64,000 nucleotides of DNA. It comes from Nereocystis luetkeana (taxonomy: Eukaryota > Sar > Phaeophyceae > Laminariales > Laminariaceae). Positions 145 through 61,021 of this stretch are shown piece by piece. The position numbers and the translations under genes were made by a program. Under the pieces are notes generated by a model that was not told the origin of the DNA, made no database searches, and saw only the letters and a program-made list of their open reading frames with translations. Within the stretch, counting starts at the first letter, position 1. Every line of letters starts with the position of its first letter. The stretch lies in assembly GCA_031213475.1 (NCBI GenBank), contig JARUPZ010000034.1, forward strand, positions 4,776,940 to 4,840,939. Direction: 5' to 3'.

Positions 145-2246
145 ATTTTGTTGTTGTTGTTTGTTGTTGTTGTTCTCACATTAACTCACAATACAATGCA
201 GTCCGTGGTCGCAGGACAGGCTCCAATAACTCTGGAGTGGAAGAAATACCTCAAGTAAAACAGAGGCAAAAACAAAAACAAGCATACGCACTCCACCACT
301 GCGGACACCAGGGAAGCAAAAAGGAGACTATTAATAGCAGACAAAAACCTAAAAAAGAAGATGAAGCGAGGCAAAAAAAACAAAACAAAACAAAAACAAA
401 AGCAGATAGCAAAACGCAAAAAAAGGCAAAACGGACCATATTAACAAAGACACAAAGAGGTACAAACGGGAATGAAAGAAGAATGAAAAAAAGAAGGGAC
501 AAAAAAAAAGCGATAATCACGGGCGGGGGGGAAAGAAAATACGAAAGGCAGGCACTGGAGCATACAGACACGCAAAGTTGCCCAGGTGGCACCATGCTAG
601 TTACTTGGGTCCCAAAGAAGGGAGTGCATCATGACGATGATGGCCGTAACCAGGCTTCAGTCTGTTGGGCAGACCGCCTCCCCCCCCCTCCCCCCCCCAT
701 TCCCCCTCGTCCCCCTTTCGCCCCCCCCCTCTTCCTTGCCATTCTGCGCACTCGCGTTGGCGTCAACGGCTGTGGTCGTGGTTGCAGCTATTCTATGCCG
801 TTCTGCCGATGCCTCCTTCTCATCTGTATGCCATTTCCCCATGAAGGCCTCCGCCCCTTCCTCGACCCGTCGACCCCATCTGCCGGCTTTCTGTGCTGCA
901 TCGCGCCACCCTTCGAGCTTGATGCCGAACTCCTTGAGGTCCTCCTCAAGGTACCTCATCCAGTCCCACTCCTGTTCTCCGGAGTAACCCTTACCCCCAA
1001 CCATCTCCCCAAACATCACCCTCTTCGCCAGACGCTCCTCTCCCATGCGTGTCACAAAGCCCGCAAACAAGAGCCTACGTCTGCGTACCGTCGTCTCAAC
1101 GCTTTCAGATTTTGTCCTGAGAAGCGCGCTAGCATAGGATAGAATGTTGTCTTCGCGCTTTCGTTTTCGCCAGCCGATGCATCGGGGGAGCATCCTGTGG
1201 TGGACCTCCCGTAGCCTACCGTCATCAGTCTTGCTCGGGCTCCAAGTAACGCAACCGTAGAGCAACGTTTCGATCACCTCGGCTCTCAGCATTCGCACCT
1301 TCAGGCGTAGGCGCACACCCGGGCGGTCATAAATTTCCATCTTATACCGTCCGAAGCATGCCCATGCCCTCTGGAGTCGACGCGTTACCTCGACACTTCT
1401 GCCCGTCCAATCTGCGCTGATAGCCCCGCCCAGATACACAAACTCGGTCGTTTGTTTGTACACTTGGCCGGCGGCGGTGACGGTGAACGGCACGTTCCCC
1501 CCATCTTTCGTTTGCAGACACATTATCTCCGTCTTGGCCTCCGAGACCGTCAGGCCGAAAGCGGCACATGCAGACACGATCACCGTCATCATCCTCTCCA
1601 GGCCGTTGGGTGATCTCGAGACTATGCCCGCATCGTCAGCATAGAGCGTAGCCCACAGTGTCTGGGCCTCTTTATCATTTCCCCTGTCCGTCGGCGTGCC
1701 CGGCCCGTGCCTTCCCCCTCTTCTTTTTCTTCTTCTCCTGCTTTTGTTGGAGTTGCACCAAGCTGTCCGTGATGGCTTTATCAGCAGCGAAACGTTTCTC
1801 CGCCACACGCAGCACCGCTGTAAAAAACATGTTGAACAGCAATGGCGCGAGCACACACCCTTGCCGTAGGCCCTGTTTCACGTCGAACATATCTGAGCAC
1901 TCGCCGTCATCCAGCCGCACGCATGCTCGCATGCCGTCGTGGAATTGGCGGATAACGGTCAGCATTCTAGGTGGCACGCCAAAGCGAGCCAAGACAGCCC
2001 ACAGTAGGGTTCGGTCGACGGAGTCATAGGCTTTGATGAGGTCGACGGAGTCATAGGCTTTGATGAGGTCGACAAAGCACATGAACTCCGTCCTGTCTTT
2101 CTTCTTGTGCAGCACCTTAATCGTTGCGTCCTTCCATTGCTGCGGCACGACCCCTCCCCTCCACACAGCGACGATAATCTCGTAGAAGCTTCCCAAGGTG
2201 TCCGAGACTCCCTCGTCGGCCAGGACCTTCAGAAGTTCAGACCCGG
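145..2246 (-). mobile_element. Non-LTR retrotransposon (LINE) copy 1, 5'-truncated and rearranged
   Basis: On the minus strand this carries the C-terminal half of a reverse transcriptase, a post-RT region and a 3' UTR that ends in a (CAACAA)n tail (145-180). TACGTA occurs at both edges (139-144 and 2247-2252) and is a candidate target-site duplication. No endonuclease domain is present, so the copy is 5'-truncated. The 3' 1.33 kb is almost identical to the inverted copy at 52493-53827. The right edge abuts a repeat-I unit and so does the left, which suggests insertion into a pre-existing repeat-I array. Calling it a LINE rests on the RT motifs, the simple-repeat tail and the absence of LTRs. 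Confidence 0.85.
657..2196 (-). pseudogene. LINE reverse transcriptase remnant
   Basis: Two overlapping minus-strand frames together give an RT. The upstream one (2196-1675) has [21 protein letters not shown], then [11 protein letters not shown], the loop [17 protein letters not shown], and then loses frame near the A/T-rich 1718-1740 run. The downstream one (1856-657) holds the catalytic YADD box (LWATLYADDAGIV) and the post-RT part (FVYLGGAIS, LLYGCVTWSPSKTDD). The protein is broken in three ways: a frameshift between the two frames; a 27-bp tandem duplication that repeats VDLIKAYDS (about 2014-2070); and a join of KKKDRTE directly to FMCFVDL, which in related RTs are separated by several tens of residues, so an internal deletion is inferred. 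It is inactive. Confidence 0.85.
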
Positions 2247-2252
2247 TACGTA

Positions 2253-2372
2253 CCTGGTACTATTTAATCAAAAGGTTCCTTATATTTAGGGACAAATATC
2301 TCTCCCTAAATACAAGGGCCTTCTGTATACTAATATTCCATCAACACCATCCTTATATTTAGGGACATAGTG
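2253..2372. repeat. Foldback repeat family I
   Basis: TTCCTTATATTTAGGGACAA and its inverted partner CCCTAAATACAAGGGCCTTC, followed by a second unit (CCATCCTTATATTTAGGGAC). It resembles 1-144, on the other side of LINE copy 1. Confidence 0.55.
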
Positions 2373-2393
2373 GTATTCATATGCGCATTAGGA

Positions 2394-2575
2394 AGCGACC
2401 GCCGGGTTAGGGGACCGCCAGTTTTTTCCATGGCCGCGAGACCGCCGGGTTGGAGGTCCGCCAACGCCATTTGGGGAGCAGGACCGGGATGTTAGGGAAC
2501 CACCAATGGAACTTGGGCAGCGGAACCGCCAAGTTAGAGGACCGCCGATGGAACTTAGGCAGCGGGACCGCCGAT
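2394..2575. repeat. Degenerate minisatellite, GACCGCC-TTAGG type
   Basis: Five or so imperfect units of about 35 bases repeat the words GACCGCC and GTTAG(A/G)GG with GGAACTTGGGCAGCGG spacers. Open frames across it are repeat-driven. No gene is recognised from 2373 to about 3200. Confidence 0.6.
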
Positions 2576-3446
2576 TCTGTAAAGAGCCTGAAAGCGTCGT
2601 GGTCAGCGCTACTGCTGTACTCGTCGGCATGGATTCTTGGACTTGAGGCTTGAGGCAAGATGCCGACAGCGTGGCAGAGGCGTGGTAGAGGTTAGAATCA
2701 AAGTGAGGCGGGCAAGAGTGTCACAACCGCGCATGTACGACCGAGCCTATACCAGGTACCAGGTATACTGCAGGAGTTGTATCCACCTCGAACATGATCA
2801 TGATCATGACATCAACACAGAACAGCAGCAGCAGCAGCTCGGCAGTAGAAGCAACAACAGCTCATGTTCTCACGTTCTTGTAAGTTCACCATCATGTGAG
2901 TTCAGTTTGTAGCACTGACCGTAAATTTAAGGCTCGTACACATATTAATACCAGTATTAAAATATCGTTACATTTTCGAACAGGGTGGTGGATTTATAGT
3001 CTTGGCCTGACCTGTTTGAACGTTAGGATCGCCGGATCTTCGGCTGCGCAGAGCACCACCGACACTTCTCGCCGGATACTGCTCAAGGACGGCCGGGGAA
3101 TCTCCACCGACGCCATGCCGACAAGCAGTTTCCGCTCTCAAACAACTTCTGTAGGTCCGATCGCGGTGGCAACAGGGGCTGCTCGGCCGTAAATCTGTTT
3201 ACCAACATGCTTCCACATCTATAGAAACCCTTGCGATCAAGAACGAAGAAGGGTTGCTTTGTGGCTTTGAAAGCACTTTTGCACAGAAGAAGAACCATGA
3301 CTGGTGTTCCCCAAGGGCCGGTTTTCGATCACCTTCAAGGCTCAGACGCTTCGCCGCAATGTTCTACCGGGGGTGGTTTTCCCCGTTCTCGCGAAGAGCC
3401 TAGGCTCTCGGTGGACAGCAGCAGCAGCAGGGATGACCTGGCAAAG

Positions 3447-3820: not shown

Positions 3821-6800
3821 GTGAGAGGTGGGCGATCTGGCCTGCCGGCTGGCCACAAACGGCGGTGCTCCATGCGGCCCCTTCGCCGGAAAACATGCGC
3901 AGTTTCTGTTCTATCACCATATGTGTACCACTATGCAGTATGTCTGTGTACGTCGTTTGAACGACGGTTTCATATACCTGGTACTCGTAGACGCATCGGG
4001 TACCAGGTATTTATACACACCATATCCCATATGGTAGCGTTGTGCCGATTGCTGTTTTTGCCCTCTCGTCTCTCGTCCCTGTATTGTGGTGTGATCCTGC
4101 TGTACGAGAAGGAACATCTCTCGGGGCGGTTGTCCACATGGCTCAAGAAGGTTCACAGTGTATGGTATCATATGTATGTAACAGGTCTTGTACTTAATAT
4201 GTACCACAAGCTCTACGGATAGCACAAGTACCCAGTCTGTACGCATGATAGGGTATAAAAAGAGCTCAATTACTACCAGGTACCTGGTATACATTTGTGG
4301 CTTCATGCATGTAGGAGCATCACACCCCCCTCTTGCTAACGCCTCCACCAAACGCAGGACAAGCGTCGCCTCCTACCGCGCAGAAGCAACTTTCTTTCAG
4401 ACCCTCGCCGACTCGGATGCTCTCGGCGCCATCGCACCGCGCGTCCTCTGGGTCCATGTTGACGACCGCCGATATGGTTGCCTCCAGTCCAACGGAAGCG
4501 GAGTGCCCAGTGGGGGAGGGGAGGCGGAGCCGGGGGTGGAGGGGGGAGGGGGGTTTGAGGGGAGGGAGGGGAGGGGGAGCGGGGAAGAAGAAGAGATAGA
4601 GGCGTTGCGAGAGTCCTCTTTCATGATGATCACCGGTGGGTGGACACGTTGGTAGCGTATGCAGTGTTGAAAATTGTCGACGCTGGGCATACGATATTGA
4701 GGCGTTTGGGGAGGTGGGAACAGGGGGCGGGGGACAAAGGAAGAGGTGCAGGCGCTGCGAGAGTCTTCCTGCGCGATGACTCTCTTTCCTGTGGGTGAAA
4801 TCGCTGGGAACACGGAAAGATGGGGCCACGCCCTCATCGAGCAGATGAATCACACAGATCTACATTACCTACACGGTAGATCCCATATTTGGCCGTCCTG
4901 AGATGGCGCGCAAGATAAGAAGAGCCTTGTCATACTGTATCATACGGATTCTACGGGGCAAACGTGTGTGCGCGCAACACCCGTCTCATACAGCAGTTCC
5001 CACCCGGAAAAAAACACTATTATTTCCTACTTCTAGGCAGTAGCTCTTGCAGACCTCATATACGAACATATCAGGAATTCATCTGCTCCGAAGGACCTAG
5101 ATCGTGAAGGGAGGATCTGATATTGATCTGATACGATCTGTGCCCTCCACGAGTGGAAAAGGGAAGGAACCATGCACATCCCGTCGCTCGGCGGCGCAAG
5201 GCTCAGCTTGTTTTGGGGTGTACGTAAGAAGAGCGGTCGAGCTTTTTGGCTTCGTACCGCTCATTCGATAAAATGGTGGGATTTCGGTTCTGAAAAATGG
5301 TTGAGATATCACCACTGCTGTTCTGTACGAGACGAAGGGACTACATACAGTAGTGCACAGTACGTACGAGCAGGGCTAGCCAATGGTTGGTTGACTGAGT
5401 CGGATTGGTTTAGGGTTAGCCATAGGTGTTGGTATGTTCGTCTCGTACGCAGTGAGCCTCAACCATTTTTCCCGAATACGGGGAGTGAGTGGAAATCTAC
5501 CCCTCTGTTACGTATGAGAGGGAGTTGTTCCCTGTTGCACTTCTTAACATTTTTATAACCGCAGTCCCGCTTTGGGGACAAACCACTCATATTCTAAGTA
5601 GTTTGTCCCCAAAACGGGACTGCAGCACTAAAAGGGACGAATTTTACGGTATCGGCTTGAAAACCCTTCTGGGACTGCAGTCCGGTTTCGGTGGCAAAGT
5701 AGCCGACAAACTACTACGGGGGGCCATAGTAAATAGGACCAGATATTGTTAGGAAAAATAGCTAAATAGACAGGTTTTTGTGTGTACCACAGGTCCTATT
5801 TACTATGGTCCACCCGTAATAGTAGTTAGAATTTGAGTGCTTTGTCCCCTGAAATGAGATTGCGGTCCTAAACGGGACAAGCAAGTTAGCCTAGAAATCT
5901 GGAAAAAAGTACCAGGTAAGAAAGTGTGTACGCATGTAGCCTACTGCAGGCGATCGCCGTCTGTATAGGAATTTGTAGGAAATGTACCCCTTTCTCGATC
6001 CGCCAGAAATAAGGATGCTAGCCCAACATCTGATGTCAGATTGAGGATGTTAGCCTAACATCTGATTTCAGAATGAGGATGTTTTCCGTGACATCTGCTT
6101 TCAGATTAAGGATGTCAGCCTAACATCTGATTTCAGGTTGAGGATGGTGGCCTAACATCAGATGACAGGTATCTTACGAGAGGGATAATGTTGCTTGTAT
6201 TTGTCGTCGTGGTTTTCGGTTTGTGTTGTTGTTGGTGATGGTGTTGCGTTGTTGTTGGTTGTTGTGGTTGCTGTTGTTGCTGTTGTCGCTGTTGCTGGCG
6301 GTGTTGTTTTTGTTGCTGCTGCCGTTTCGCTGTTGTTTGCATGTTAGTGTGTTTGCCTGTATTGCATACCTGGTACCTGGTATATGTTTGCGATTGTGCC
6401 CTCCAGGTGGCGCAAGCACCACATGCTGTTGTGACGCGAGTACCTGTGTTGCGCTCCGGCCTATCGGCCTGGGCTACGACTTGTAACTGCAAAGAAAGTA
6501 CGCAAACGTGCTGTCTAGGATAAAACGATTTTTACTACGAAGCTATCACCAGTACGTCAGCTGTGTGCTCGACGGATAAGGCGCATTCTTGTCGGAGAGC
6601 GTTTTTTCCAGAAATTCCAAAGTTTGGAAATAATTGGAGATACGTATCAATATACGGAGGCGTTCTGTCGCTATTCGTGAAATTCTCCAGAAGCAAAAAT
6701 ATCAAGTTCGTTAACATTCCAACATTTGGAAAAAAAAAAAAACAGGAAAATATGGAAGATTGAAAAATTGCGCGAAAAAAATGTCGAAAAATTGGAAAAA

Positions 6801-9114
6801 AAAAACTCTCCGATAAGAATGACCCTAAGTGTTTGATACTCAGCTTTGTGCGAGCTGCGTGATCGATACGTCGGCCGGTCGCGAGTGCTCTGTATCCATG
6901 TGAATGCTATGTCGAACGAACTGCGTCACGGATGATGCACGGTAGGCACAGCTGTTGCAGCGTCTCAACTGTTTCGCACTGCGAAAAATATCGAACCCTG
7001 GTTCCAAGTTTGACCCTTCCCAAACATGCGTGCGATTGCAGAGGAGTCGAGGTCGACGTGCTCTACGAGCAGAAATAACGGATCACAAGAAAAATAAAAA
7101 AGTATTTTTCAGTAATGCACCCGGACAACATATTACGAGGGACCATAGTAAATAGGACCAAATATTGAGAGTAAAAAAAGGTAAATATAGGTTTTTGTGT
7201 AGACCATAGGTCCTACCAGGTATTAACTATGGTCCCCCGTAATAGTACGAGCGTGAGATTTGAAACAGCTGGACTGTCAGAACATGGTGCGAAAGGGCCG
7301 CCCAAGAAATTGGGCGCGCATTCATGCACGAACATCTCACCCCCGATGTCATGCGACCCCGCACAAACTTATCCTCCCCTCCTCCCTCTCCCCTGTCTCC
7401 CTCTCTTCCTCGCCCACCCCCTTCCCCTCCACCCCCCTCCTCACCGCCTTCTCCCGTCCCCCCCCCGTCTTCCCCTCCCCTTCTCCCCCTTCTCCCCCTC
7501 CCCTCCCCCCCCCCCTCCCCCGGCCTCCCCACTTCCCACGGCCGCTCCCCCTCTCGGTGGTACACCTCCTCTCAGAGGACCTCGGAGCAGAGCCCCGGCG
7601 ATACGAGTCCGGCGTGAGAGAAAAGGGATGCATAGAAGGGTCTGAAAACACAGCCTGGGAACAGGTTAGAGACCACTCTCAAAAGGGTTTGCGTATGGGT
7701 TGGGTTTGGGTACAGGGTTGGGTAGGGTATGTGACTGAGTTGGGTTGGGTTAGGCTGGGTTAGGCTGGATTGGGCTGGGTTGGATTTCTTTGGGTTGGAC
7801 TTCGGGGTTGGCGTGGAATTGGGTTTGGAATGGATTGGGTTTGGGCCTGAGTTGAGTTGGATTGCCTTGGCTTTGGGTCACAGGGTGGATTGGGGTTGGT
7901 GTTGGTTTTTGCTTGATTTCCGTTCGAGTCGGCTAGGTCTGGGTTGGGGTGGATCGGGTTTTGTTTTAGTCGAACTCAGATTTGGTTTGAGTCGGCTTGG
8001 TATGGTTCGCGGTTGGGTTGGTTGGGGTCGTGTTCGATGCCGATCGGCTAGGTTTGGTTCTAATTGGGTTTGTTTTTGGTTCGTGTTTGGTTCGGGTCGG
8101 CTTGGTTTGGGTTGGGTTGGATTTGGGTTGGGTCTGGGCTAGGTTTGGGCTGGATGCGGGCGGGACCTAAGCGGGAGGGGGGTTGCGCCGCCGCTTGTGC
8201 TGCGAACGCATGCAGCACCCGTTCACTAGTTGAGCATACGGCGGCCATTGTACGGGGGCTTTTCGTGTCGCAGGAGAAGGGGGAGGCGGGGGGGGGGGGG
8301 AGGGGGGGCTCGTTCGAGTTTATTGCCGCAATTGCTTGGCTAGGCCGTCACTCCCCCCCCGCCCTCTATATATTGTCACAGTCACGCTGCCACCCCGTCA
8401 CGGTCGTGATCACCATCTTTATTCGATCTCCCGCCGCTCACGAGGAAGTTACATACCAGGTAGTATACCCATTGCTATCCCTGAAAGTGGCCACACCGGA
8501 AAGCAGTGAATTCACCCAGCCCTGTCGTCCATTGCAAGAAAGTACGCACAAAGGTGTCGAAACCCGCATCGCAGGCCGTTCTTGGCAGGATGAAGCTCAC
8601 CCTTCATGCGACTCCCCTAACACCTGACCGCGCTTCGCGCTTGGGGCAACCAATGCTTATGCGGGGTCGGTGAAAGCCCGGCGTGCTCCGTCCCGGCGTT
8701 GTAGGGATGCGAAGGTCTATGGATATATGCTAACATATGGCTATATGCGGTCATGAATGATATTGAGTACATCCCCCCCCCCGCTACATCTCTCCTATCG
8801 AGTACACCTCCCCCCCCCCCCCCCGCCTCATGTTATCATGGTCGCGCTCCATCACTCTCGTGATCATCATCATCATCATCATCATAATCATTTGACCCCT
8901 CTTCCCCCCCGCGTCATGCCTTGGCTGTCAATGACGCCCCCCCCCTAAAAAAAAGGTGGGTGCTTTGGACGTGGAGCGAGCCAAGGCCGCCCTCTCTGCA
9001 GCAGCGCACCTACACGCCTCCTTCTGGCCAGCGCCGCCAACATCGCCGCCACCACCATCAGCACCAGCACCAGCAGCTGCAGTAGCATCGACCGCAGGGG
9101 AAGCAACAGCAGCA

Positions 9115-14208: not shown

Positions 14209-14304
14209 AAAATAGGACCAAAATATTGGCAGGGAAACATACCAGGTACAGGCTTTTGTGTGTACCGCAGGCCCTGTTCACTATCATGGTCTCCCCGTAT
14301 TAAT
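14203..14304. mobile_element. MITE-A copy sharing an end with its neighbour
   Basis: Begins in the GTAATAG end of the previous copy (AATAGTAAAATAGGACC) and ends ATGGTCTCCCCGTATTAATA. CATACCAGGTACAGG replaces CATACAGG: a CCAGG plus TA insertion at about 14250-14262. Confidence 0.8.
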
Positions 14305-16349: not shown

Positions 16350-17230
16350 TAGAGTCCCACTGTGGCGACGAAACACTTGGAAATTATGACCAGATATAGG
16401 TGTAGGTACAGTCGACTGCAGTTGCGCCACTAAAAAGGGGGTGATGAGACTCAATCCCGCATCACCAACCCCAGTTTTGCTTCGTGCCAGGTATATACCA
16501 ACTACTGCTGAAGTGCGTTCATTCTTGTACACATTGATTTGTTTTGGGTCTGCTTAATTTTTTTCTCTTATTTTTTCTTTCACACCTAAAATTGTGCCTG
16601 TAAATAAATACCGGCAATTGCTGTTGTGACATCCATCCTCCCCCCCCCCCCCCGTCCACCGAACGAAGGTTCGGGCAAGCCGACCGAACAAGTCCGATTT
16701 TCTTAAATTTTCTTTCGAACGGAAAATCTTGTCTATTGAGTCATACCGGCATCTAATCCCGCTATCCTCAGACGCGCCCGCCCCCACCCACCCACCCACC
16801 CATCCAACCACCCGCCCGATGTTGAAGATTGCCGATTAGCGTGTGTGCCGACTAGGGGGTGGCTGGTGTGTACTGCTTAGACTCGATTGCCGATGGCCGA
16901 ACAATACATAATGACAGGTAACCGTCTACCAGGTATGAATTTTGGTTGGCAAGCGCAATTCACGAGGAGGTGGGCCTGCGCGAGAAGCTTCAACAGAAGA
17001 GAAGAGAAGACGATGATGAGATGGTGGTGTTACAGCAGGGTACAGCTCTCAGACTCTAAAAAGGGCCCGCGCTCGTTATATCTCTGAGGCCGACTGACCT
17101 GCTGGTTAGGAGTTCGAGAAGCGCCTTCGTGCAGTAATGATCGGGTCACGCATAAAGTGAACCGATGCCATGCAGTATGTAGTAGTTGCAAGCAGCCAGA
17201 GTGAGCAACGGAACAGGCACCACAGACACG
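16350..17230. other. Intergenic stretch without recognised gene
   Basis: Contains a C-run (16640-16655) and CCCACCCA repeats (16780-16805). Nothing else is supported. Confidence 0.5.
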
Positions 17231-18800: not shown

Positions 18801-19311
18801 CGAAAGCTACCCTGGTATTTTCTTCCCGAAGTTGGCGGACACCCCCGTTCAAGACGTAATCGTCGGGTAGCACCTCCAACACTACGTGTATACATACATA
18901 GCGCACGGAAATGTTGTGGGTCGGGTTTTGCGCGCGAGCAAACTTCTTCCGCGTCATGCTTCGGGTGAGATAGACAGGAAGTATTGAGCTAGTTCCTCAA
19001 GTGAAGAGCTCCAGAAAATAAGCCACCGCCCCCATAGGGGCATTTGCTCTTGTATATATTGTAATGCCGGCATCTATAGTACATGCTGGCGCTATATATA
19101 TCACGGCACTAGGGAGGAGGGGGGGGGCATCGGGGCCCTTGAAGGTCCCCCCCCTGGGCATTCCATCCCGCTCGGCCGCCGCCGCTGCTGATGAAACACT
19201 TGTTCTCGTTTTCTGTTCCTCTTACTGATACTATAGTGACAGCGAGAGCCTAGCCGAGGCCTTCCATCACAAACCCGACCCCGGGGTATCAACACAGCCC
19301 TTCTCCATCCA

Positions 19312-22192: not shown

Positions 22193-22392
22193 CCCGTCGC
22201 AACAACATACATACGTATACCCTGGTATGGTTTAACGTCTACGATATGCTGAGAGAAAGAAAGGTACACTACGCCACGCTTGGCTTCTGGATTTATTGTG
22301 AATTGATACTTGGTACTGCTACTGTAGTATATAATTAGCTAGCCTCACGAACGAGCGAGCGCAGAAAGAAGCGAGCCTGGGCTAGGTATTAA

Positions 22393-32418: not shown

Positions 32419-34009
32419 ACAACAACAAGAAGCAGGGGAAGAAAGGCAGGCAAGGCGGGGCGGGCAGGCAGGCAGGCAGGCAGAAGGATGTTTTCTTATC
32501 AAGTTGGGCTGTTTTAAGTTCTTTCCCGTAATCGTGTGGTGTTGTTTTTTTTTCACTATACAATTGCTTAAACTTACACTTTACCAGGAGGTATATACTT
32601 CACGGTCGGGCCCGGCCCGGCCGGTCGGTCGGTCGATCGCCCAAAATATGTTAATTATAGATATTAGGGGAGAGGGGAGGGAGGCAGATATATTTATAAT
32701 ATATATATATATATATATATATGTTTTCAAGTAATTGAGTTGGATTCGTTTTCGTTTGTTTGCTTCTGACTTGCTTTTTTTTTTCACAGAGAGCTGGGTG
32801 AGGTCGTCCCCCGCCCGGAAAACCTCCGTTTTTTTGTGTTCATGCCTTCTTCTATGCCCATCTCCGTTTCTCGTACTGATTGGTGTCTTCTTCTAAAAGC
32901 CCGCACACAGCAGCAGACGACAATTACATAAAACATAATTAAGCACATACCTGGTATAATATATACATACATACCTGGTACGCAATTTGACGCGCGTCGA
33001 CGAGGAAACAAACGGCCGAATTCGAGTCTTCTAGGGACAAAAAAAGCGAAAGGCACGTATATACATGTATGAATGCGCTGCGTAACCCTTATCTACTACC
33101 ACTACTATTACGGGGGGCCATAGTTAATTAAGACCTGTGGTATACATAAAAACCTAGATATTTAACAATTTCTACTAACAACGTCTGGTCTAACTATGAT
33201 CCCCCCGTAATACTGTTGATTGCATATCAACATTTATACGTAGGAAGAACAAGAGAGATGGGCGGAGAAGACAGATAGGATACGATAGGATACGATAGGA
33301 TAGGAGAAAAAATAGTAGAAAACAATCGAAAACGAAAACGGTGCTCGCGTTTTTAGAACTGCAGTCCCGTTATGGGGACAAACTACTTGGAATTTGAGTG
33401 GGCTGTCCCCAAAACGGGACTGCGGCTCTAAAAAAAGGGTCAAGGCATGCATGCCCTGCCCTTTTTCGTCCCCTGTGTCTGTAATTTTGCTGTCTTCCTC
33501 TTTGCACGAGCAGGAGGAGATTGATGAATAAAGCCAACTTCCTGACTTAGTTTAGGGATCATTTCTGGATGGCAATACTATTATAGTAGTGATGATGATT
33601 TCTGACATTATTGATAGCTTTTACTACCCCTGAAACCCATCTCATCCTGACTGTGGCCACAAAACAGGCTTGAAACAAAAATGCATCTCGAAGGGAGAAA
33701 ATTCATACCCGGCAATAAACTAAGACTGTTAAGACCGCGTGGACATGCAAAGAGTGCCTTCAGGGAATACTCACTTGTATGTAATTTGTGTGGGATGCTT
33801 TTTACAAGAAATAATGTGAGGTCTAACCAGGACTACCAGGTGTATGGTCCTCATTACTGCTGTAGAGTGGGATGTTTTTTTTTGCGGTGCTAGTCCGGTC
33901 TAGACTGCTTGGAATTAGTACTTTTTGCGGTGCTATTAACGGGTTACCATAGTAAATAGGACCAAATATTGTTAGTAAAATTATCGAAATATTCAAGTTT
34001 TGTCCGTAG

Positions 34010-36868: not shown

Positions 36869-39380
36869 GACGACTGATGGTGCTGGGGATATCTTTCTTC
36901 CCTCTCAGCTAGCTTGGATGGATAAGAGACCCCGCCCGCGCACACTTGGTTGATGGTGGTCTGTATATCTCTCTCTGCTGTCGTCCCAGGCAAGCACTTG
37001 CTAGGGATTGATTGAAGCGAGACGGACGAGCCGAGGATTTCTCGGCGCTGCTGCTGCTGCTGCTGCTGTTGCTGCTGCTGTGCTGTTTGTTCTTCGCTGC
37101 CTCAAACTTTCTCTGTCTTGCGTCGGTGGTCACAAGGATTCGACGCGGGATCAGGGTCACAGGCGAGGTAGCGAGGTGCAGTGAGAGGAGAAGGAGTAAG
37201 CCATCACGCGCGGGAGGAGGAAGAGAGGCAACAAAAACATATCGCAGATGTTCTTCGAGGACCCTGCTGTGTCATGCCGCCTCGAGAGAGAACGGGGTCC
37301 TCCACTAAAAATTAGATAAAAAATCATCAAATCCAGGACCCCGCGATTTTATAATCTCGCCGCATTTATGTAATTCCGCCGCGTTTTGCGGCTCTCAGCG
37401 CTCATCATCGCTGCCACTTCACGGCCAATTGTCAACCGCCATCTAGCCACTGCCATAACCTCCCTAGGTGACGGACACCCACGTCCTTCTTCGGTGATAG
37501 ACGGCGATCAGCGCATGTATGGGTGATCGAGGGCGTGCCTTCGACGAGCGAGCGGAGATGTTAGGTGATGGGACTCCCTACTTTCCGGCCATGGTTGCTC
37601 AAAAATACTTGCTGCTTGCTTCTTTCCTCTGTTCTTGGTTCTGTGCTGCAGTGGCTACCAACGCTACGAGTATGTAGATTCTCTATGCAGGTAACAGCAG
37701 TAAGAAGTACATAGGCGACGATCCTATTATGTATACCTGGTGCACTCGCAGGCAGGCAGGACAAGTCGAAGAGGGGTGGATTCACGACGGAGCGAACATA
37801 TATAGACCACGCGGCCGACGCGCCACGCAGCTTGCAGAGAGACTAATCACTTATCAAGTAAATCGGCCGAACTTGGCGGACCATACGATATACAGCAGGA
37901 ATTCCGTGTGCCAGACAGAGGTAACAGCACCACCAGGTATGTATGGTACCAGGTACTACTCGTACTCGTACGAAGTGGGGAGCGAGTTAGGACGAAGAGT
38001 CGGGTGTTCTGATATGGTGGTGTTCTCCACCAACACGGCAGTAGCACCGGCAGCAGTTGCAGTAGCGGTGCCACAGCAAGTGCAGGGACGTCTATTCAAA
38101 CCTCGGACGAACAGTCGTGTACGACCGTATGTACATGGTTTACACCAACCACAGCACAGCAGTACATACGTACGTACAAATTAAACATCTCTTTTATATC
38201 GTAGTATCATTCGGATGGTGAAACAAATAAATAAGGGGAGTTTAAATGGTCAGACAGACTGGCATAATAAACTCACTCGTAGCTCGTACTGGTATACACC
38301 TGGTTACATTATGTATGCCCGCGAATAAGGAACAACACAATAAGAACCGAAGGCTCATTTTTCAGGGGGCGTTAAGAACTTCAGATCAAGATATCGTGCG
38401 CAGCGGCGAACGAACGCTACACTAAACATTGATACCTACCTGTCTATTAATTAATACCAGGTACTGATACGGTTTAAGCAGAACACACACAAGTCCATAC
38501 AACGTACCAGGTACGTAAACACTCAAGGTTTTGGTGTCACAGCCGTGTACCAGGTAGCAAGTAGTCGCTTGGTCATATTACGTACCGTACGTACCAGCAG
38601 TAGGCGTTTCTTGGTGGCGGGGGGGTCCATGCTACTACTGCTTCATTCAGTTGTCCTTCAAGCAAACACCAATCAATCATCAGCCTATCTATGGCGTAGT
38701 AAGACAGATACCGTGTCACACGTGGTTGGGTGTGTGCAGTCTTCTCACATCTAAAGGTTGTTTCCTCCAGTCGACAGACAGCTAGCTACCTGGTAGTCTA
38801 CATACAGCGACGGCACACCCAGCGGTCCGTCCGTCCGTACGAGAGTTCAATATCGATTTTTGATCCTAGAAGTTGCGCGTGCCAGGTACGTACTGCTGTA
38901 CATGTACATACGTACGTAGAGAGCTATTGTTAGCGCCTTTGCGGCACCGATATATATATCGACCGAAGGAAGCAATGATAAAATAAACTTTTAGCGTTAT
39001 CAGCCGTCTACGAGCGCGTGAGGGCCATGCCGCTACCTACCTACGCCCGCGCCGTGCGACTCCTTCCTTGCGTTTCAACCATTGCAACTCGGGCACCAAT
39101 TTGTATCACCCCCCAAAATCACAAAAGACAGGTGGCGTTACTGACATCCGTCACTTTTTTATCGGTAACTTTTCCCCACCGAAGAATTTAATAAATTAAA
39201 ATATCAATGGCACCTGGTGGGAGTATTGAGTGAAAATAAGTACCAGGTAGGAGGTACCTCGTGGTAAGTGGAGTACCCTAACCTGGTAGCACGTTGTGTG
39301 TGCCCTGAGAAGACGAAACATCGAACGAGGTCGGTCGATATTCTCGCCTGGGTTTCTTTCTTCTATGCGGATAGGATACA
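36869..39380. other. Upstream of gene 2, no recognised gene
   Basis: May hold the 5' UTR and promoter of gene 2 (minus strand). No TATA box can be claimed. CCAGG/CCTGG footprints are frequent here (37945, 38456, 38504, 38547, 38789, 39240). Confidence 0.5.
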
Positions 39381-39446: not shown

Positions 39447-39669
39447 TCGGCGTCCGGGCCTGGTTCTCATCCATGCTGCATGCTTGCTTGCAGGAGAGGC
39501 GGACTTTGTTGTTGCGCTCCCACTCACTATTTATAACAGACTTACGAAGATAAATAGATACCTGGTATATCATGCGCGTGCTGTTGCCGTGCGTATCATA
39601 CATCATTCGCATCGTTAGCATGCGCCCAGACAAATGACGGCGGGTCTAGATGGATGCATGGATGCACAC

Positions 39670-40449: not shown

Positions 40450-42135
40450 GGTGGGTTCGGGTCGCACTTCAACTTCCGAATGCGCGGGAAGCGTACGTTG
40501 ATTTTTTCACAGGGGAATATGATTTACTCTGCTGCTGTGAACGAGACACATATTATATAAAATACATGAAAGTTGATCGTTGGTTGCCTGCCTGTATAAA
40601 TAAATATGGCCAACAACGTCGAATAAAAATCATTTCGACTCGTACGAGTAGAGCAAATATGAACGTAAAAAACACCGTCGTTCAAAACTATCAACACGAA
40701 CGTGACGCAGCGTACCGGTAACGGTAAGTCTTCCTCTCACCTTCTTCCCTCTTCCTCGCCTTATACACATTTTTTTTTGTGTCGCGGTTCTGCGTGGTTT
40801 TTCGTACCACGGGAAAAAAATATGGTGTTCAAAGTATTTCATGTGGGCATGAAGACCTACCGGTACATGTTTACTAACTAACCCACGTGCTGGTCAACGT
40901 CGAGTAAAAATCCTTTCAGTCGCGACTTCTGTTCCCCAAAAAAAAGAACACGCGCTACGACTCGTACTCGTCATCTGACTGGCTATGAATAGAGTAGTAG
41001 CGTTTCTCACCTCTTTCTGCGGGTCGCTTGCTGCTCCTGGTTCGTACTATTGCGCTTGCTTGTTCGTGCTCTTGTCTTGCGAAAACCTGCCTGCCTTTCC
41101 GTGCGGGGGGAGGGAGGGTGGCGCAGATAGATACCGTCACCTCAGTATTTTCGCGGGAACGGCACCACCAAGTCAGTCGCCTTTCGTTCGTTCGTTCCTC
41201 CCTTCCTTCCTTCCTTCGTTCGTTCGTGCCTAGATAGGTCGGACTCTCTCGTTCTCTGTGTCCGGGTCTTTGGATGCGCTGCCTCGATCCACGGCTAGTC
41301 AGAAGAAAAAAATGCCTGATCCTTCTGGCCGACAGACAACACGGTGTGTGTAATATGCGTGTGTGTATCCAACAAGCTCGGCGCGTGTGCGGAGGAGGAG
41401 ACAGTTGTTGGACCCTGTGATCGACGCAACGCGCGGGAAAGGGATGTAGGGGCACAAACCGAACAAACCAAAGCCAGGGAGGGGTGGTGGAGTTGAAGGG
41501 GCCCCAGTCGAAGAAGAAAGCCAGGGAGAGGTAGGGAGGGTGGAATGGCGTGGAGAGGTAAGGAGGCCTGCTTTTTCTGTTGCTGTCTGGTCGTTTTTGT
41601 TAGGTCGGCCCCGCCCGGCCCGTGTACGAAGGGGAGACTTACGGTCTAGATAGAGGGGGGGGATATTCATGCCACAGCGAAACAAACAGACGAAAAATAA
41701 GAACATGGATGGGTCGCTGCTTGACAATTGTATGTTTTTCGCCTTAAGGTGAAGAGCAAACTATGTAAGAAGCCCTATACATATGACATTATAATAACAA
41801 CTGCTGTATTCTCGCTATTAGTATATGGGTGGGGTCGCAGTCTATTCCATGTTTGTTTGAAGTGAAACTCCAAACCTATTGTATTATATTATTTGTATCA
41901 AGTACCAGGTATTAATTAATATATACCTGGTACTTCGTATACCAGTATATATTACATGGTACTCAGCGTATGGTCTAAAATATTTGTTTTGGCATTCGTA
42001 GTGAGCAGAGAGAGCCGTAGACGGGGCAGGGTCGAGGGAAACACCGTCCTACTGCCGTGCAGCAGCTCGTCGCCCATTTATGTCACAGCCCGCCACAACA
42101 ATGACAAGCAACAACGCAACCAGTTGCAAGATCGG
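40450..42135. other. Intergenic stretch without recognised gene
   Basis: Contains TTCC/TTCG runs (41180-41228) and an inverted pair of CCAGG motifs (41903-41930). Nothing else could be supported. Confidence 0.5.
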
Positions 42136-42139: not shown

Positions 42140-42439
42140 CTTCACGGCTGACCGACAATATTTTGCCATATTTACCTGGTATTGTTCAACAAAATTAAAC
42201 ATGAACCACAAGAAAAAAAAGTGACACCTGAACATGATAGCAAGTCTGTGAATCTACCGGGGCAGCCTAATAGAGGAAGCTCTGCCGACTTCACGGCTGA
42301 CCGACAATATTTTGCCATAATATTTACCTGGTATTGTTCAACAAAATTAAACATGAACCACAAGAAAAAAAAGTGACACCTGAACATAATAACAAGTCTA
42401 TGAATCTACGGGGGCAGCCTAATAGAAGAAGCTCTGCCC
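42140..42439. repeat. Tandem duplication, ~148-bp unit
   Basis: Two copies, with TTCACGGCTGACCGACAATA starts at 42140 and 42290. Both carry TTTACCTGGTATTGTTC, so this CCTGG site predates the duplication. The copies differ by a few bases. Confidence 0.85.
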
Positions 42440-46040: not shown

Positions 46041-46586
46041 TGCTCGCTTTTGGGTCGAAGGTAGAAGAAAATTAGGTTGAGATAAACAAACAAACGGCTC
46101 AGTGGTGAACCCTACACTAAATCCTATATAATACTAGCCTATACTCAAGGTTTTTGGAAGATTTCGCCCCCGTAAGAATCTCAGGCTTGCCCAGATTTGG
46201 CATTTCTTGTTGGGGGGGGGGGCATACTGCAGTATGCAGAATCATGGCTGTTCAATATCAAGGATGACGTGTGTCACACTAACAAGGCTCTAAGGTTTGC
46301 TCATGGTAGTAATGTACCAGGTAAGTAAGTAAGCAAGCACACCATGGATCTGTGTTTTGTGGTTGGGCGGCCCGGCCGGCCCTTGCCGCTGTTCCACCCA
46401 TGATACCTCCGTGGGGACTCCCGAGATATCGACCTACCCAATGGTTGACATTTTTCTGGGGGGGTGTTACGAACCGTCTACATATGTACGAGCGGCAGGA
46501 GCGAACAAACAGCAAGCAGGGAGTATGTACTGCGAGAGCATTAACTATCTATCACGTCGAGCCTGTGCCGTGTACTGCTGTGTATA

Positions 46587-46696: not shown

Positions 46697-46976
46697 AAAC
46701 CAACTACTTGGATCGTCCATCCACGAATCAATCACGCACGCAGTCAGTGGATGTTGCTGCAGGTAAGTCCACCATCACTTTTTTCTTTCTTTTTTTTGGT
46801 CGTCGTCGTCAATTTTTCCCTCCGAAGAAGCAAGCACCAAGAGGCGTAGCGTAATACATAGACAGATAGCCAGCCTATATGTGCTCAATCAAAGTCATTC
46901 CAAGGATGGTGTCACATCACAATAAGGCTCCTAAGGGTTGCTCATGCGTTACGTATATACTACAGTACCTGGTATG

Positions 46977-49232: not shown

Positions 49233-49870
49233 AGTAATGTGTTCTATGTGTCCCCGCATCCTGAGTGCAAGCATACCTGGTAGTTATAAAGGGGGATACG
49301 ATACCCTTTCATATTGATACCTACATCGGACAGACAGACAGATAAATAGATCATGATCTGTAGATCAATACGTAACATCGACTCCTAGTGTGTTCGCCGT
49401 TTTTTATTTGAGATGGGTGAGAAACGAAAGGCCCGTATATCGACCAGATGCATCCCACCCGGCAACACAAATATGTGCTCGCAAGAGCTGTGCGTCATAC
49501 AGATAGATAGATCCTGCTCGGCCTAAACAAATAAACAGCCCTCGTTAAGATCGACCCTATAAGCGGCACTTCTTTTTCGTCAACTTTGCCCGAGAGGGGT
49601 CAGCACAAGCTACAAGCTACGTGGTATTGCAAGCAGGACGTAGCCTCCGCTACCCCGCGTACCAGGCCTATACAGGACCGTTGACGCCAAACGAACGACC
49701 CGCTGGTGTACCGTCCTCCTTCCCATCCCCCGGTGCACCATCAGCGTCGACTAACTGCCTTACCTTGGGCATTCTGCTACCGGCTTTCGGTGGCCGGTTC
49801 GGTTCGCCCACAAGCCGACTTTCTCCTTCCCGCTATAAATAGCCACTGAACGACCTCGGCCCCATCTAAC

Positions 49871-50020: not shown

Positions 50021-50142
50021 TATTACGGGGGATAATAAATACCCTGGTAGTAAATAAGATCAAATATGGTGGGTAAAAAATAGCTGAATATATGGGCTTA
50101 TGGGAGTACCGTAGGCCCTATTTAATATGGTCCCCCGTCATA
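50021..50142. mobile_element. MITE-A array member 1
   Basis: TATTACGGGGGATAATAAATACCCTGGTAGTAAATAAG at left: the ACCATAG segment is altered and carries CCTGG. Right end AATATGGTCCCCCGTCATA. Confidence 0.85.
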
Positions 50143-50362: not shown

Positions 50363-51139
50363 TAAGTTTTCGGTTTTTGTGTTGTGAGTGGGGTTTTTTT
50401 CCCTTTGTTGTTATTATTGAGTCGGAGAACGTTGACGAGTGATGGGCGTCAAATCTACCGTAGTCCAACAGGCTACTGCTTGTATTCCAGTAGGCTACTG
50501 CAATAATAGGCTACTACTGCTGTACGACGTAGTTCAGTTTGGGGGACTGTATGTATGTGGTCCAGTAGGTTTGCCTTTGTTGGGCTTTCCCTTCGGTTTT
50601 CTTCTTTCGTCGGGGCATGTTTTTTTTTGTTGATCAACGTTGATGAAGGTCATGCATGTCCTGCGCTTTTATCGGAAGGCAAACGCCGTGAGTAATTACA
50701 ATTCACAATTAATAATAATAACGGATATATAAACCCGAACGAAAACAACCGTCCGTTCGGTTCACCCCTTTTGGTCGGATAAAATATCGAAAGTTTCGAT
50801 GAATCGCAACATCAGAACCTTCGATATATCGTATATATGCATCGAGCGTGTCTTATTTGCCTTTCCCTCCCCTGGCATCCCCGTGTTTTTTTCTGCAGAT
50901 AGATACCGTACGTAACGAAAGCTTCGATGTGTATACCAACATCAACTATCGAAATCGTCTCGATTACCTGGTACCTTTTTTGTGTATCGTATATCGGACT
51001 CGATTCCTATATCGATACGCCATCACTCGTGAAATGGATACATTCACAATCCGCTTGGACAAGTACCATCATGGGTGTGTCCGGGATGTGTCGTAGGATG
51101 CAAACGGCGGATTAATGTGGAGACAGTGCGGCACACAAC

Positions 51140-52380: not shown

Positions 52381-52492
52381 CGAGTCAAGCCGGGAAGGGA
52401 AAGGGATGATAATACACAGCAGTCAGTGGTGGCCCCTCTATGTACTGCACTATACATAGCGGCCACCCGCACTACTATTACAGGGGACCATA

Positions 52493-53827: not shown

Positions 53828-54375
53828 GTAAATAGGGCCAAATATTGTTAGTATAAATACCGAAATATATAGGTTTTTGTATGCACCGTAGGTCCTATTT
53901 ACTATGGCCCCCCGTAATAGCTTTGTCAAGCGGTTCCACGCTACGTATAGGGGGAATTCGGCACTACTGCTGTAGAGGGATCCTTCTACTGTTTATTATT
54001 AATATTGTACCAGGTATTTATCTTTTTTTTTTTTACGTACGTACACCAGGTAGCCTAAAAATACAGGACCCAGTCCGAGTTGAATCGAATATCCTCTTAA
54101 ATACCGCAGCCTCAGCAGCAGTGCGAGGAAGAAGAGTCCTCTCTTTGTTACGCATCAGTCTTCCATTATTGAATAAAGGCTCACAATCTACGCCTCCCTC
54201 CCTCCCGCCACTTGACAACCCTCGTTTATCGACTCGACCTCATGCGCAGGAGCGTCCTGCACAAAAAGAAAACGCGGGTATTTATTTCGGCCACCCCGCG
54301 TATTTTTGACGCCTCCAAAACACGCGGCGGAGCCACGTGACTTACTGCCCCTGCAGACCTCGATCCCCCCAAATG

Positions 54376-54440: not shown

Positions 54441-54888
54441 GCCGACGTGCAAGGTTAAAATTGACGACACACGGCCTCGTTTGGTTCTACAAGCTACGAG
54501 CAGCACACCTCAGGCAGAGAAGATCATTCCCGGCTGGTGATCTACAGTACCAGGTAGATATTTTCAGGGCAGATCTAGTCCCTTGGATCTGCATGATCTG
54601 TATGATCTGTATGATCTAGCTCGTGTCGACGCGTGGGAGCCGTACATATAATATGTATGATCTACAGCGATGTACAGCGCATGCTTCCTGCGCTGGACCC
54701 GTGCTTTGACGGTGGCCCATAACCTGATATACAGTACTGCTATGAAGGTCTTATTAATATTAATAGTTCGTTGGGCTACTGGTGAAAAAATTAACCAAAT
54801 ACCGACGTACCCGATCTAAGCCTTGTAACCCCCCCCCCCCTCGTATGGGGCCGTGCGTCCTACTAATAGCCCGCTGCTCTCGACAATC

Positions 54889-58932: not shown

Positions 58933-59356
58933 GTGGCAGCCGGCACTATTCCGTGCACTGCCACACCATTAATAGTTGATGAATCCCATCTGTCCGGGCC
59001 GAGCGATTTCACCGGTCCCACAGCGGACACCCGGCAATATTATAGTCAACCGGGAGTGTAACGGGACCCCTACTGTTCTGTAGTAGCCATCTACTTTGCC
59101 GATCGATTTAACCGGGACCATACCGGGCAACCGGCGATATATATAAAGAGGGGCCGGCACTGCTCCTACTGTATCAAAAAAAAGAAGAAACCGCTGGGCG
59201 AGAGGGGAGAGAGAGATGAGAGTGGGAAGACAACATCCTACTGACAGATGATTTTGAAGAAAAAAAAAAAGAAAAAAAAAACATTCGTGACATACTACAG
59301 TAGATATTCCCAATCTATCCGTTCGATCTGCAGCAGTAACTTATTTTATATAGACC

Positions 59357-59611
59357 GTCCTTATCGGACGGCATTCTTTCCAGAACTTCCCGAGTCTAGA
59401 ACTAGTTGGACACATGTATCAGGATACGGAGAGTTTTCGGCAAAAAAAGAAGAAGGTGAAATTCTTCAGAAAAACAAAAAAAAAACAGGAAAGTTAGGTT
59501 TTCACCTATTTTGGGGAAAAAATCGATCTGCAAAAAAATCTGGAAGATCACAGAAAAACGAACGAAAAAAATGCAAATTAATGGGAAAAAAGCTCTCCCC
59601 TAAGAATGGCC
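59357..59611. mobile_element. Foldback family F, copy 2
   Basis: CTTATCGGACGGCATTCTTTCCAG at left; AAAAAAGCTCTCCCCTAAGAATGG at right; interior TATCAGGATACGGAGAG parallels TATCAATATACGGAGGC in copy 1. Confidence 0.7.
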
Positions 59612-60002
59612 CTATTAGTAGCTCATGTTGCCGGGTGGGAGGGAGCCGTGCATGGTACTCTGCATGACCGATAATCGCTCTTCCCCTACTAGATTTTATC
59701 TGTAAGCACACAGCTATACAGATCCTGCACTGCACCTCATGGCGGCAGGTTAGGTTCTATTAATAGATTACCCCCGGGTATCTATCTATCTGTAGATCAT
59801 GATGATATGTTCGAGGTGCGCATGGGTGCAGTGCAGGCAGGCAGCACCGCACGCATGAGGGACAGACAGATCGGATCAGACAGACAGACCACCCTTTATT
59901 TATTTCATGATCGACGCGCGCTGTGTACGATAACACGTATCACTATTTAGCGCTTTTTTTTTTGCCCGCACTAACAACGAGACGTTCTACGCTAGAGGTT
60001 CA

Positions 60003-60200
60003 CCCCATTGTTTGCTGAGGCTCCTCACATAAGGAGCTCCATACCTCACCCGAAAGCTGAGATCAGCAAAAACTCAAATTGCATCCCGATGCATAACGCC
60101 ATGGCCCAATTGTATTAAAACGCCATTTTTCGAAACAAAATTGGCATTCCGACGATTTTGGGTTAAGGAGCCCCGTTATTCAGAAAATATTTTAGCGGGA
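60003..60200 (-). repeat. Repeat family E, copy 3
   Basis: Reverse complement of the 58.3-kb copy: GAGGCTCCTCACATAAGGAGC, TACCTCACCCGA, CATTTTTCGAAACAAAATTGGC, CGACGATTTTGGGTT. Confidence 0.75.
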
Positions 60201-61021
60201 AATGTGCTCCCTCTATCTATCGTAGAACGAGTCCAACACTACCCAACAATTACGTCAAAACATCATTTTGTATTTTCAGTTTTTTTTCGGACAACACCCA
60301 CCCACGATATAGGCCGAGGTTACAAGCGTCCGTTTTCTTTTTTTGTTCTTGCTTGTCAAAATCAGTTTTCGGGAGAGATGCGGAGTTTCTCAAGCTGTTA
60401 ATAGCAGCCTCAGACGGCAAAAATCGGGGCCGCCTGCACCGTAGGGCACGACACGTCTTCTGTTTCTACTGTAGATATTTCCGAACTAAACAGACAGACA
60501 GGCAGGCAGACAGACCCCTGATTTTATACTCGTACAAATGACGGGGTTCTCCCGTACAGTAGGTGTGGGTGGCACTTTTCGGCCCCCAAAAAACTTTTCT
60601 GATTTTGTTTACTGTTGACACTCTTCTTAGCTGAGCTATTGACCTAATCGTTCGAACCAGGAATATAAGTACTGCTTTGACCTTGATACCAACATCGAAC
60701 GGAACTTATGTTATCCATCAGCGTGGTACCCAAAATCATCTGTTTTTCACGACACCGTTTCGTTTCAGACCTACCTGGTAGTAGTAGCTACGGTAGCTGT
60801 TAATAGTCATGGGGCCTTTGATTGCTCGTCGTGTCATCCGGTTGAAAAAAAATAAAAAGTGTGCGTTTTTTTTCTTTTTGCAAGCCCTCCTCATCAAGTG
60901 AACATTTTTTTTTCTTCTTGATGCACCCACCGCTACCGTGCGTGTATACTAGGTTCTTCTTCTTCATCCCCGCTTTCTTATTTTTTTTTCTCGCCCTCCT
61001 CCATTATCTATGTAGATACAG

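What the first reader, a model, noticed from the sequence alone, without database searches (positions are those of the whole stretch)
2246..60785. TACCAGGTA/TACCTGGTA: a dispersed 5-bp insertion with TA duplication
By eye I count about 40 exact TACC(A/T)GGTA sites (for example 2248, 2752, 3977, 6367, 8454, 14258, 16928, 28509, 32948, 36109, 38456, 38504, 38547, 41903, 46964, 50978, 54007, 60772). Random expectation is about 0.5 in 64 kb. Occupied and empty repeat copies inside the window show the mechanism. Repeat C has TACATAGTA at 26531 but TACATACCAGGTAGTA at 8452. MITE-A has CCTATTAAC normally but CCTACCAGGTATTAAC at 7216. MITE-A copies at 14258 and 58874 and the minisatellite unit at 28509 show the same change. 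So CC(A/T)GG enters at TA and duplicates TA. The central base is only A or T. Inferred mechanism: excision of a mariner-like element with ends CCA...TGG, leaving 3-nt overhangs that meet at one A-A mismatch, would give exactly CCAGG or CCTGG. I know of no description of this in such genomes.
Basis: partly seen in the sequence, partly recalled or inferred. Interest (0 to 1): 0.9.

Follow-up and report, generated by a model that had tools for sequence, protein, structure and literature searches.

The report
Countless five-base scars of vanished transposons
A brown-alga genome carries an enormous number of copies of one nine-base palindrome that look like the repair scars left when a cut-and-paste transposon jumped out, although no such transposon was found in the parts examined.

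Summary
The window holds 41 exact TACCWGGTA (about 1 expected); its 465-Mb assembly holds 182,395, against 1,744 for the reversed word. Repeat copies with and without the motif show that CCWGG enters at TA and duplicates TA. The emptied sites share a palindromic target signature: T at +1, +3 and +6 and A/T at +7 on both sides. Variant joints (6-bp CCAGGG/CCCTGG; 4-bp CCAG, CCGG) carry the signature too, the 4-bp ones more weakly. Most are products expected if 4-5-nt overhangs CCAG(G), not 3-nt CCA, anneal in or one step out of register, though some enriched 6-bp words are not predicted. Best reading: excision footprints of a TA-targeting, Tc1/mariner-like element with tips near CCAGG...CCTGG. 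No source element was found in about 330 kb of window and samples, nor at eight sites read at one MITE position. Excision footprints are known; a uniform 5-bp scar at this density was not seen in the paper listings and passages consulted. Comparison with relatives was not possible.

The parts
2251..2259 (.). footprint TACCTGGTA
2750..2765 (.). nested double footprint TACCAGGTACCAGGTA
3975..3983 (.). footprint TACCTGGTA
4001..4009 (.). footprint TACCAGGTA
4274..4289 (.). nested double footprint TACCAGGTACCTGGTA
5910..5918 (.). footprint TACCAGGTA
6367..6382 (.). nested double footprint TACCTGGTACCTGGTA
7214..7222 (.). footprint TACCAGGTA inside a MITE-A copy; other copies read CCTATTAAC or close variants
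   Evidence: aligned MITE-A copies lack the 7 bases
8454..8462 (.). footprint TACCAGGTA in repeat C
   Evidence: copy without it at 26530-26538; another genome copy (L025:9132) has the insert at a different TA
14240..14248 (.). footprint TACCAGGTA in a MITE-A copy
   Evidence: fits with one substitution
16927..16935 (.). footprint TACCAGGTA
26530..26538 (.). empty site TACATAGTA of repeat C
27383..27391 (.). footprint TACCTGGTA, probably in an intron of the NIF-phosphatase gene
   Evidence: the intron is inferred from the ORFs
28511..28519 (.). footprint TACCAGGTA in a minisatellite unit
   Evidence: suggestive only
28766..28774 (.). footprint TACCAGGTA
30749..30757 (.). footprint TACCAGGTA
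32283..32291 (.). footprint TACCAGGTA
32948..32956 (.). footprint TACCTGGTA
32972..32980 (.). footprint TACCTGGTA
35528..35536 (.). footprint TACCAGGTA
36108..36116 (.). footprint TACCAGGTA
37947..37955 (.). footprint TACCAGGTA
38455..38463 (.). footprint TACCAGGTA
38505..38513 (.). footprint TACCAGGTA
38548..38556 (.). footprint TACCAGGTA
38787..38795 (.). footprint TACCTGGTA
39241..39249 (.). footprint TACCAGGTA
39559..39567 (.). footprint TACCTGGTA
41903..41911 (.). footprint TACCAGGTA
41924..41932 (.). footprint TACCTGGTA
42173..42181 (.). footprint TACCTGGTA, unit 1 of a 152-bp tandem duplication
42325..42333 (.). footprint TACCTGGTA, unit 2 of the same duplication (copied, not counted as an independent event)
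46315..46323 (.). footprint TACCAGGTA
46966..46974 (.). footprint TACCTGGTA next to a MITE-A copy (46977-47086)
49274..49282 (.). footprint TACCTGGTA
50965..50973 (.). footprint TACCTGGTA
54008..54016 (.). footprint TACCAGGTA
54548..54556 (.). footprint TACCAGGTA
60772..60780 (.). footprint TACCTGGTA
18808..18817 (.). probable 6-bp variant footprint TACCCTGGTA
22218..22227 (.). probable 6-bp variant footprint TACCCTGGTA
50040..50049 (.). probable 6-bp variant footprint TACCCTGGTA

Best explanation
The sites are excision footprints of a cut-and-paste DNA transposon that targets TA, works like Tc1/mariner elements, and has inverted tips beginning CCAG, most likely CCAGG (TA|CCAGG...CCTGG|TA). 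Shown: CCWGG plus a TA duplication is an insertion relative to paralogous copies; the host site has a two-fold symmetric target signature; 6-bp and 4-bp variants share that signature, and the 6-bp one has the same duplication. Inferred: insertion duplicates TA; the transposase later cuts the flanks with a 4-5-nt stagger, leaving cohesive ends; full annealing pairs the C and G bases around one A-A (or T-T) mismatch, and repair makes it A or T, giving CCAGG or CCTGG. Annealing one step out of register gives CC(A/C)(G/T)GG (6 bp) or C(C/T)(A/G)G (4 bp). The element is rare or gone in this assembly while its scars number about 180,000.
For: 182,395 sites against 1,744 reversed control; 78 in 266,141 readable bases of sampled stretches, 24 of 28 stretches, expectation 1.65. 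Empty paralogs: of 111 sites tested, 18 had a paralog aligned across the junction at E<=1e-4, and 12 of those 18 had at least one that aligned without a gap there once the insert was taken out; the better ones are window 7214, 8454, 14240, L026:1198 and L025:9132. In repeat C two copies carry the insert at two different TAs 3 bp apart and two copies have none. 6 of 6 CCAGGG cases read are TA-CCAGGG-TA inside MITE-A at the same TA as window 7214. Target signature from 110 site clusters: T+1 50% (background 29), T+3 40 (27), T+6 49 (24), A/T+7 82 (53), nothing clear beyond +8; T+6 on both sides 29 of 110 against 6.3% of 18,152 TAs; 0 of 1000 random TA sets reach the window's value. TACCMKGGTA, the four predicted 6-bp words, 18,845 against 1,198, the other 12 dinucleotides 10,000 against 3,720. 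Among 93 listed places CCAGGG+CCCTGG: CCATGG: CCCGGG is 27: 13: 14, as independent repair of two mismatches predicts. Of ten 4-bp C..G cores only the predicted CCAG (34, expected 10.0) and CCGG (11, 4.9) combine excess with a signature above z 3. Reported target preference of Tc1-like elements is the palindrome ATATATAT (passage of PMC7913693).
Against: No element with CCAG(G) tips in the window plus 28 stretches nor among 8 sites read at one MITE-A TA. Those scans see only elements up to 7-9 kb lying whole in one stretch, and tips reading CCAGGTA would be hidden among the scars. DDE_3 and Transposase_1 gave 0 matches (in 72 the controls were silent too); DDE_1 gave 28, of which the two read have no inverted ends. 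39 of the 93 listed 6-bp places are not predicted words, CCGAGG/CCTCGG being 16, and the 12 unpredicted words are 2.7-fold over control; CCCGGG places cluster locally, so part of that class may be repeats. The third predicted 4-bp core CTAG shows no signature (5 against 2.8, z 0.4), and unpredicted CGAG (57 against 11.0) and CAAG (20 against 10.6) are in excess without it. The matched control TACCKMGGTA did not complete. A 5-bp footprint lies outside the 2-4 bp given for Tc1/mariner in PMC7913693. In rice only 8 of 94 excisions left a clean duplication (PMC4423477), so such uniformity is unusual.
Confidence: 0.76

Rival explanations
1. Same class, but with 3-nt 3' overhangs from element tips CCA...TGG, the two A bases meeting unpaired.
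For: CCA as a 3-bp core is in excess (66 against 43.3) and carries the target signature (z 3.8); CCATGG, its full fill-in product, is 13 of 93 listed 6-bp places while CCTAGG is 1.
Against: It does not give CCAGGG or CCCTGG, which together number 27 of the 93. A join held by one mismatched base would hardly be this uniform (inference). A 3-bp CCA also follows from trimming a longer overhang.
Confidence: 0.1
2. Programmed elimination: germline elements of this kind are removed in the sequenced life stage, as ciliate internal eliminated sequences are, so the assembly shows scars and no elements.
For: Scars far outnumber elements: none found in about 330 kb.
Against: The sampled stretches hold decayed scars: one-mismatch words 100 against 45.1 expected, with the target signature (z 5.5), so many scars are probably old and inherited. 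No such process is known to me in brown algae (recalled, not searched for).
Confidence: 0.08
3. The 5 bases are added by an enzyme at broken TA sites (abortive cutting by a transposase or nuclease with non-templated addition), with no element ever present.
For: No element found; two-fold symmetric target.
Against: The fixed CC..GG and the 4-, 5- and 6-bp product sets need a defined sequence on both ends.
Confidence: 0.04
4. A functional palindromic protein-binding site kept by selection.
For: It is palindromic and abundant; in the window one-mismatch neighbours are near background (17 against 13.6).
Against: It is an insertion with target duplication inside MITE copies, occurs in several lengths, and decays in the sampled stretches.
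Confidence: 0.02

Closest known systems
Sleeping Beauty (Tc1/mariner) excision footprint TAC(A/T)GTA
   Same: TA duplication and a palindromic scar with a central A or T (footprint in passages of PMC3432063, PMC4378557 and PMC3878927); repair of 3-nt 3' overhangs by NHEJ (passages of PMC7827188); palindromic AT target of Tc1-like elements (passage of PMC7913693)
   Different: 3 bp between the TAs, not 5; the element is known; described from experiments
mariner (Mos1-like) footprints
   Same: tips beginning CCA and TA target (recalled)
   Different: recalled footprints are 3 bp (TACCATA/TATGGTA); here 3-bp CCA is a small excess
mariner/Stowaway-type excision scars in rice
   Same: TA elements leaving scars after excision (PMC4423477, passages)
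   Different: heterogeneous: 8 of 94 excisions of all superfamilies clean; here one uniform product dominates
Mariner-Tc1 families of Ectocarpus
   Same: a brown alga with 17 families and 11,912 copies (PMC12477816, passages)
   Different: the passages shown give no footprint and no terminal-repeat letters; far fewer copies than scars here

Membership tests
Tc1/mariner superfamily | TA target duplication | tested here: met
Tc1/mariner superfamily | palindromic AT-type target preference | tested here: met
   compared with a passage of PMC7913693
Tc1/mariner superfamily | footprint made of the tip overhangs, 2-4 bp | tested here: inconclusive
   variant joints fit cohesive tip overhangs, but the main footprint is 5 bp, outside the 2-4 bp of PMC7913693, and the tips themselves were not seen
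Tc1/mariner superfamily | terminal inverted repeats of a resident element matching the scar | tested here: inconclusive
   none found in about 330 kb or at 8 sites read; most of the genome was not read
Tc1/mariner superfamily | DDE/D transposase gene tied to these tips | tested here: inconclusive
   PF13358 0, PF01359 0 (controls silent), PF03184 28 matches; 2 of 28 read, no tips
Ciliate-type internal eliminated sequences | removal in each generation in one life stage | not testable with these tools
   one assembly only; decayed scars speak against

The most novel reading that the evidence does not exclude
A TA-targeting transposase with an unusually long, 5-nt cohesive stagger has excised on the order of 10^5 times in one lineage. 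Its repair is so uniform that the genome records scars of single jumps far in excess of surviving copies: either a hit-and-run element that almost never stays, or a host-run elimination system.
Probability: 0.3. Interest if true: 0.93.

Novelty: new variant of a known kind. Interest (0 to 1): 0.8.

Why it matters
Scars of single excision events are usually few and varied. Here one 465-Mb genome offers about 180,000 plus thousands of variant joints: a natural record of how a eukaryote's end joining resolves a defined cohesive break, a history of transposon activity that can be dated by decay, and a source of 7-bp insertions (canonical sites alone amount to about 0.27% of the genome, 182,395 x 7 bp over 465,085,209). 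It also raises a testable question: where did the element go?

Tried and rejected
Exact-word literature search listed 20 of 217 papers, by title and abstract unrelated. Double-site search in viral contigs gave 9 stretches; eight hold only the double and one a further site, so I take them as chance. A 2.7-kb inverted-repeat candidate at L012:6410-9154 was rejected because its arms run on outward past the TACC. The strongest inverted pairs in L012, L033, L028 and at window 44341-48096 were not accepted because their tips are CCG or CCC. Weak pairs beginning CCT (L019:7696-7754, L038:5765-5914) were not followed up. One search left out starts that are themselves exact scars; searches kept them and list scar pairs that match for 17-22 of 24-26 bases, nine of them from the motif itself, which I took as chance without a formal test. 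DDE_1 genes L039 and L040: no inverted ends. TACCNNNGGTA is 2.8-fold over control but its listing is dominated by CCTGGGG/CCCCAGG, which in sampled stretches looks like a repeat family, so it was not read as footprints. TACAGTA/TACTGTA is in excess (113 against 46.2) but lacks the target signature. Viral-contig relatives of the RT and NIF proteins: none. Rfam: none. Tips CCTGG instead of CCAGG would predict CCTGGG, CCCAGG and CCTAGG, which are 4, together, and 1 of the 93 listed places.

Unanswered: the counts of TACYRGTA, TAGGTCCTACCWGGTA (116, 120, 122, 124, 127, 132, 133), the one-mismatch count (66) and the matched control TACCKMGGTA (80, not repeated) never came; two searches of the cap were left. 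Rows dropped: seven of eight members of one tandem array in the tally; the duplicated site 42325 and second members of doubles in the flank statistics. Genome listings show only the first 100 rows, all early on contig 1 for the short patterns.
Full report
OBSERVATION. The window holds 41 exact TACCWGGTA. Markov models of order 1 to 4 expect 0.55 to 1.6 for both words together. The word is the most enriched TA-N5-TA word and the top 9-mer once low-complexity words are left out. The assembly the window lies in has 465,085,209 bases in 1,987 contigs, and the window is contig 34, 4776940-4840939. It holds 182,395 sites against 1,744 for the reversed pattern. In 29 sampled stretches, one of them all N, 78 sites lie in 266,141 readable bases, expectation 1.65, and 24 of 28 readable stretches have at least one.

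ORGANISM. A gene in the window encodes a NIF-type phosphatase. Its two best relatives are partial proteins named from Ectocarpus species, at 55% and 73% identity over 73% and 55% of the query.

IT IS AN INSERTION. MITE-A is a ~110-bp inverted-repeat element; one search finds it in 30 places of the window (60 rows, nearly all places matched on both strands). The copy at 7131-7245 reads GGTCC-TACCAGGTA-TTAAC where others read GGTCC-TA-TTAAC or close variants. In the combined data 111 sites were tested: 18 had a paralog spanning the junction at E<=1e-4, and for 12 of these at least one paralog aligned without gap there once the insert was taken out. Several of the 12 are poor alignments or lack the TA. 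The better ones are window 7214, 8454 and 14240, L026:1198 and L025:9132. In repeat C the copies at window 8454 and L025:9132 carry the insert at two different TAs, while window 26530 and L025:9246 have none (the latter has GA at one of the TAs), so the events are independent. The reads (below) show the duplication again.

TARGET SIGNATURE. Around the emptied TA the two sides read the same outward: T at +1 50% (background TA 29%), T at +3 40% (27%), T at +6 49% (24%), A or T at +7 82% (53%), fading at +8 and not clear beyond. T at +6 on both sides occurs in 29 of 110 clusters against 6.3% of 18,152 other TAs. In the window alone, 0 of 1000 random TA sets matched the deviation. Such a two-fold symmetric target is what a transposase dimer would leave (inference). 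Tc1-like elements are reported to prefer the palindrome ATATATAT (PMC7913693, passage).

VARIANT JOINTS AND THE OVERHANG. If both flanks end in CCAGG after excision, full annealing gives four C-G pairs and one A-A mismatch, hence CCAGG or CCTGG. Slipping by one outward gives CC(A/C)(G/T)GG; slipping by one inward gives C(C/T)(A/G)G. TACCNNGGTA has 28,845 sites against 4,918 reversed. The four predicted words have 18,845 against 1,198, that is 4,711 per word against 833 for the other twelve, controls 300 and 310. In the first 100 listed places, one tandem array collapsed, 54 of 93 are predicted words in the proportion 27: 13: 14, against 2: 1: 1 expected if the two mismatches are settled independently. 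Against this: 39 of 93 are not predicted, CCGAGG/CCTCGG being 16, the twelve unpredicted words are 2.7-fold over control, and CCCGGG places cluster locally. In the local data CCAGGG has the highest target-signature score of the 6-bp cores with six or more cases. Among ten 4-bp cores, CCAG and CCGG alone combine excess with a signature above z 3; the third predicted core, CTAG, does not, and CGAG and CAAG are in excess without signature. At one MITE-A TA, TAGGTCCTACCAGGV has 102 matches, control 0; eight were read: six of six CCAGGG cases are TA-CCAGGG-TA followed by MITE-A sequence, one is compound, one altered. Full fill-in joints CCAGCTGG or CCAGGCCTGG were not among the 50 places listed of 7,928. 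A 4-nt overhang CCAG predicts the same 4- and 6-bp words, so I conclude 4 to 5 nt and prefer 5 because of the uniformity. The data cannot tell 3' from 5' overhangs.

NESTING AND AGE. Doubles TACCWGGTACCWGGTA number 15,917 against 2 in the control, 13 times what equal use of all TAs would give. A scar itself supplies T at +6 and A at +7 to its neighbour TA, which may explain this (inference). Among the 59 doubles listed the centres are AA or TT in 40, AT in 14, TA in 5, which departs from 2:1:1 (p 0.006), so some may be tandem duplications. Scars decay: one-mismatch words in the sample are 100 against 45.1 expected, and they carry the target signature (95 cases, z 5.5); the reversed word has 36 one-mismatch neighbours there. 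In the window they are 17 against 13.6, with 12 for the reversed word, so its scars look younger; why is not known.

WHERE IS THE ELEMENT? No inverted pair with CCAG tips was found in the window and 28 stretches, about 330 kb. The scans see only elements up to 7-9 kb lying whole in one stretch, and a tip CCAGGTA would be hidden among scars. Zero there means fewer than roughly 4,200 copies genome-wide at 95%, if copies are such and spread evenly (inference), so scars would exceed elements at least forty-fold. Pfam DDE_3 gave no match, Transposase_1 none with silent controls, DDE_1 28. The two DDE_1 loci read have no inverted ends.

KNOWN WORK. Passages seen, not whole papers: PMC3432063, PMC4378557 and PMC3878927 give the Sleeping Beauty footprint TAC(A/T)GTA; PMC7827188 and PMC4378557 its origin from three tip nucleotides; PMC3878927 gives 2-3 bp overhangs for Tc1/mariner and PMC7913693 2-4 bp footprints; PMC4423477 gives 8 clean cases in 94 rice excisions; PMC12477816 lists 17 Mariner-Tc1 families with 11,912 copies in Ectocarpus; PMC3770610, PMC9976928 and PMC3627910 were looked at for footprints or TA elements. 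The listings of searches in the open PubMed Central library showed no title or abstract start describing genome-wide footprints of this kind; that is a limited search.

VERDICT. Excision footprints with a 4-5-nt CCAG(G) stagger explain the insertion, the duplication, the central A/T, the target symmetry and most of the variant joints. The missing element, the unpredicted 6-bp words and the absence of any comparison with relatives keep the confidence near three in four.

Noticed in passing
window, 30 places, e.g. 11208-11318: MITE-A, a ~110-bp inverted-repeat element with ends TATTACGGGGGACCATAG, very dense in this window; copies aligned are roughly 72-84% identical, gaps included.
   Followed up: partly
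window 44193-44485 and 47952-48234: Long inverted repeat, arms of 145 nt at 97% about 3.5 kb apart; its tip words recur in several sampled stretches.
   Followed up: no
window 657-2196 (-) and 52440-53366 (+): Two copies of a LINE-type reverse transcriptase; a third in L012 is split by a 2.8-kb inverted-repeat insertion (6395-9169).
   Followed up: partly
L039:1-4001, L040:1-4001: Open DDE_1 (pogo-type) transposase frames without inverted ends, perhaps host genes, with scars around them.
   Followed up: partly
window 1-64000 against L010-L038: Decayed scars are scarce in the window (17 against 13.6) and common elsewhere (100 against 45.1); the local age of scars seems to differ.
   Followed up: partly
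L011:6862 (-), L012:2279 (+): Similar sequences with TACCCTACCTGGGG(T/C)ATGTA, probably a repeat that explains the excess of TACCTGGGGTA.
   Followed up: no
window 18392, 18425, 18608: Three TACCCGGGTA close together; similar clusters occur on contig 1, perhaps a repeat rather than scars.
   Followed up: no
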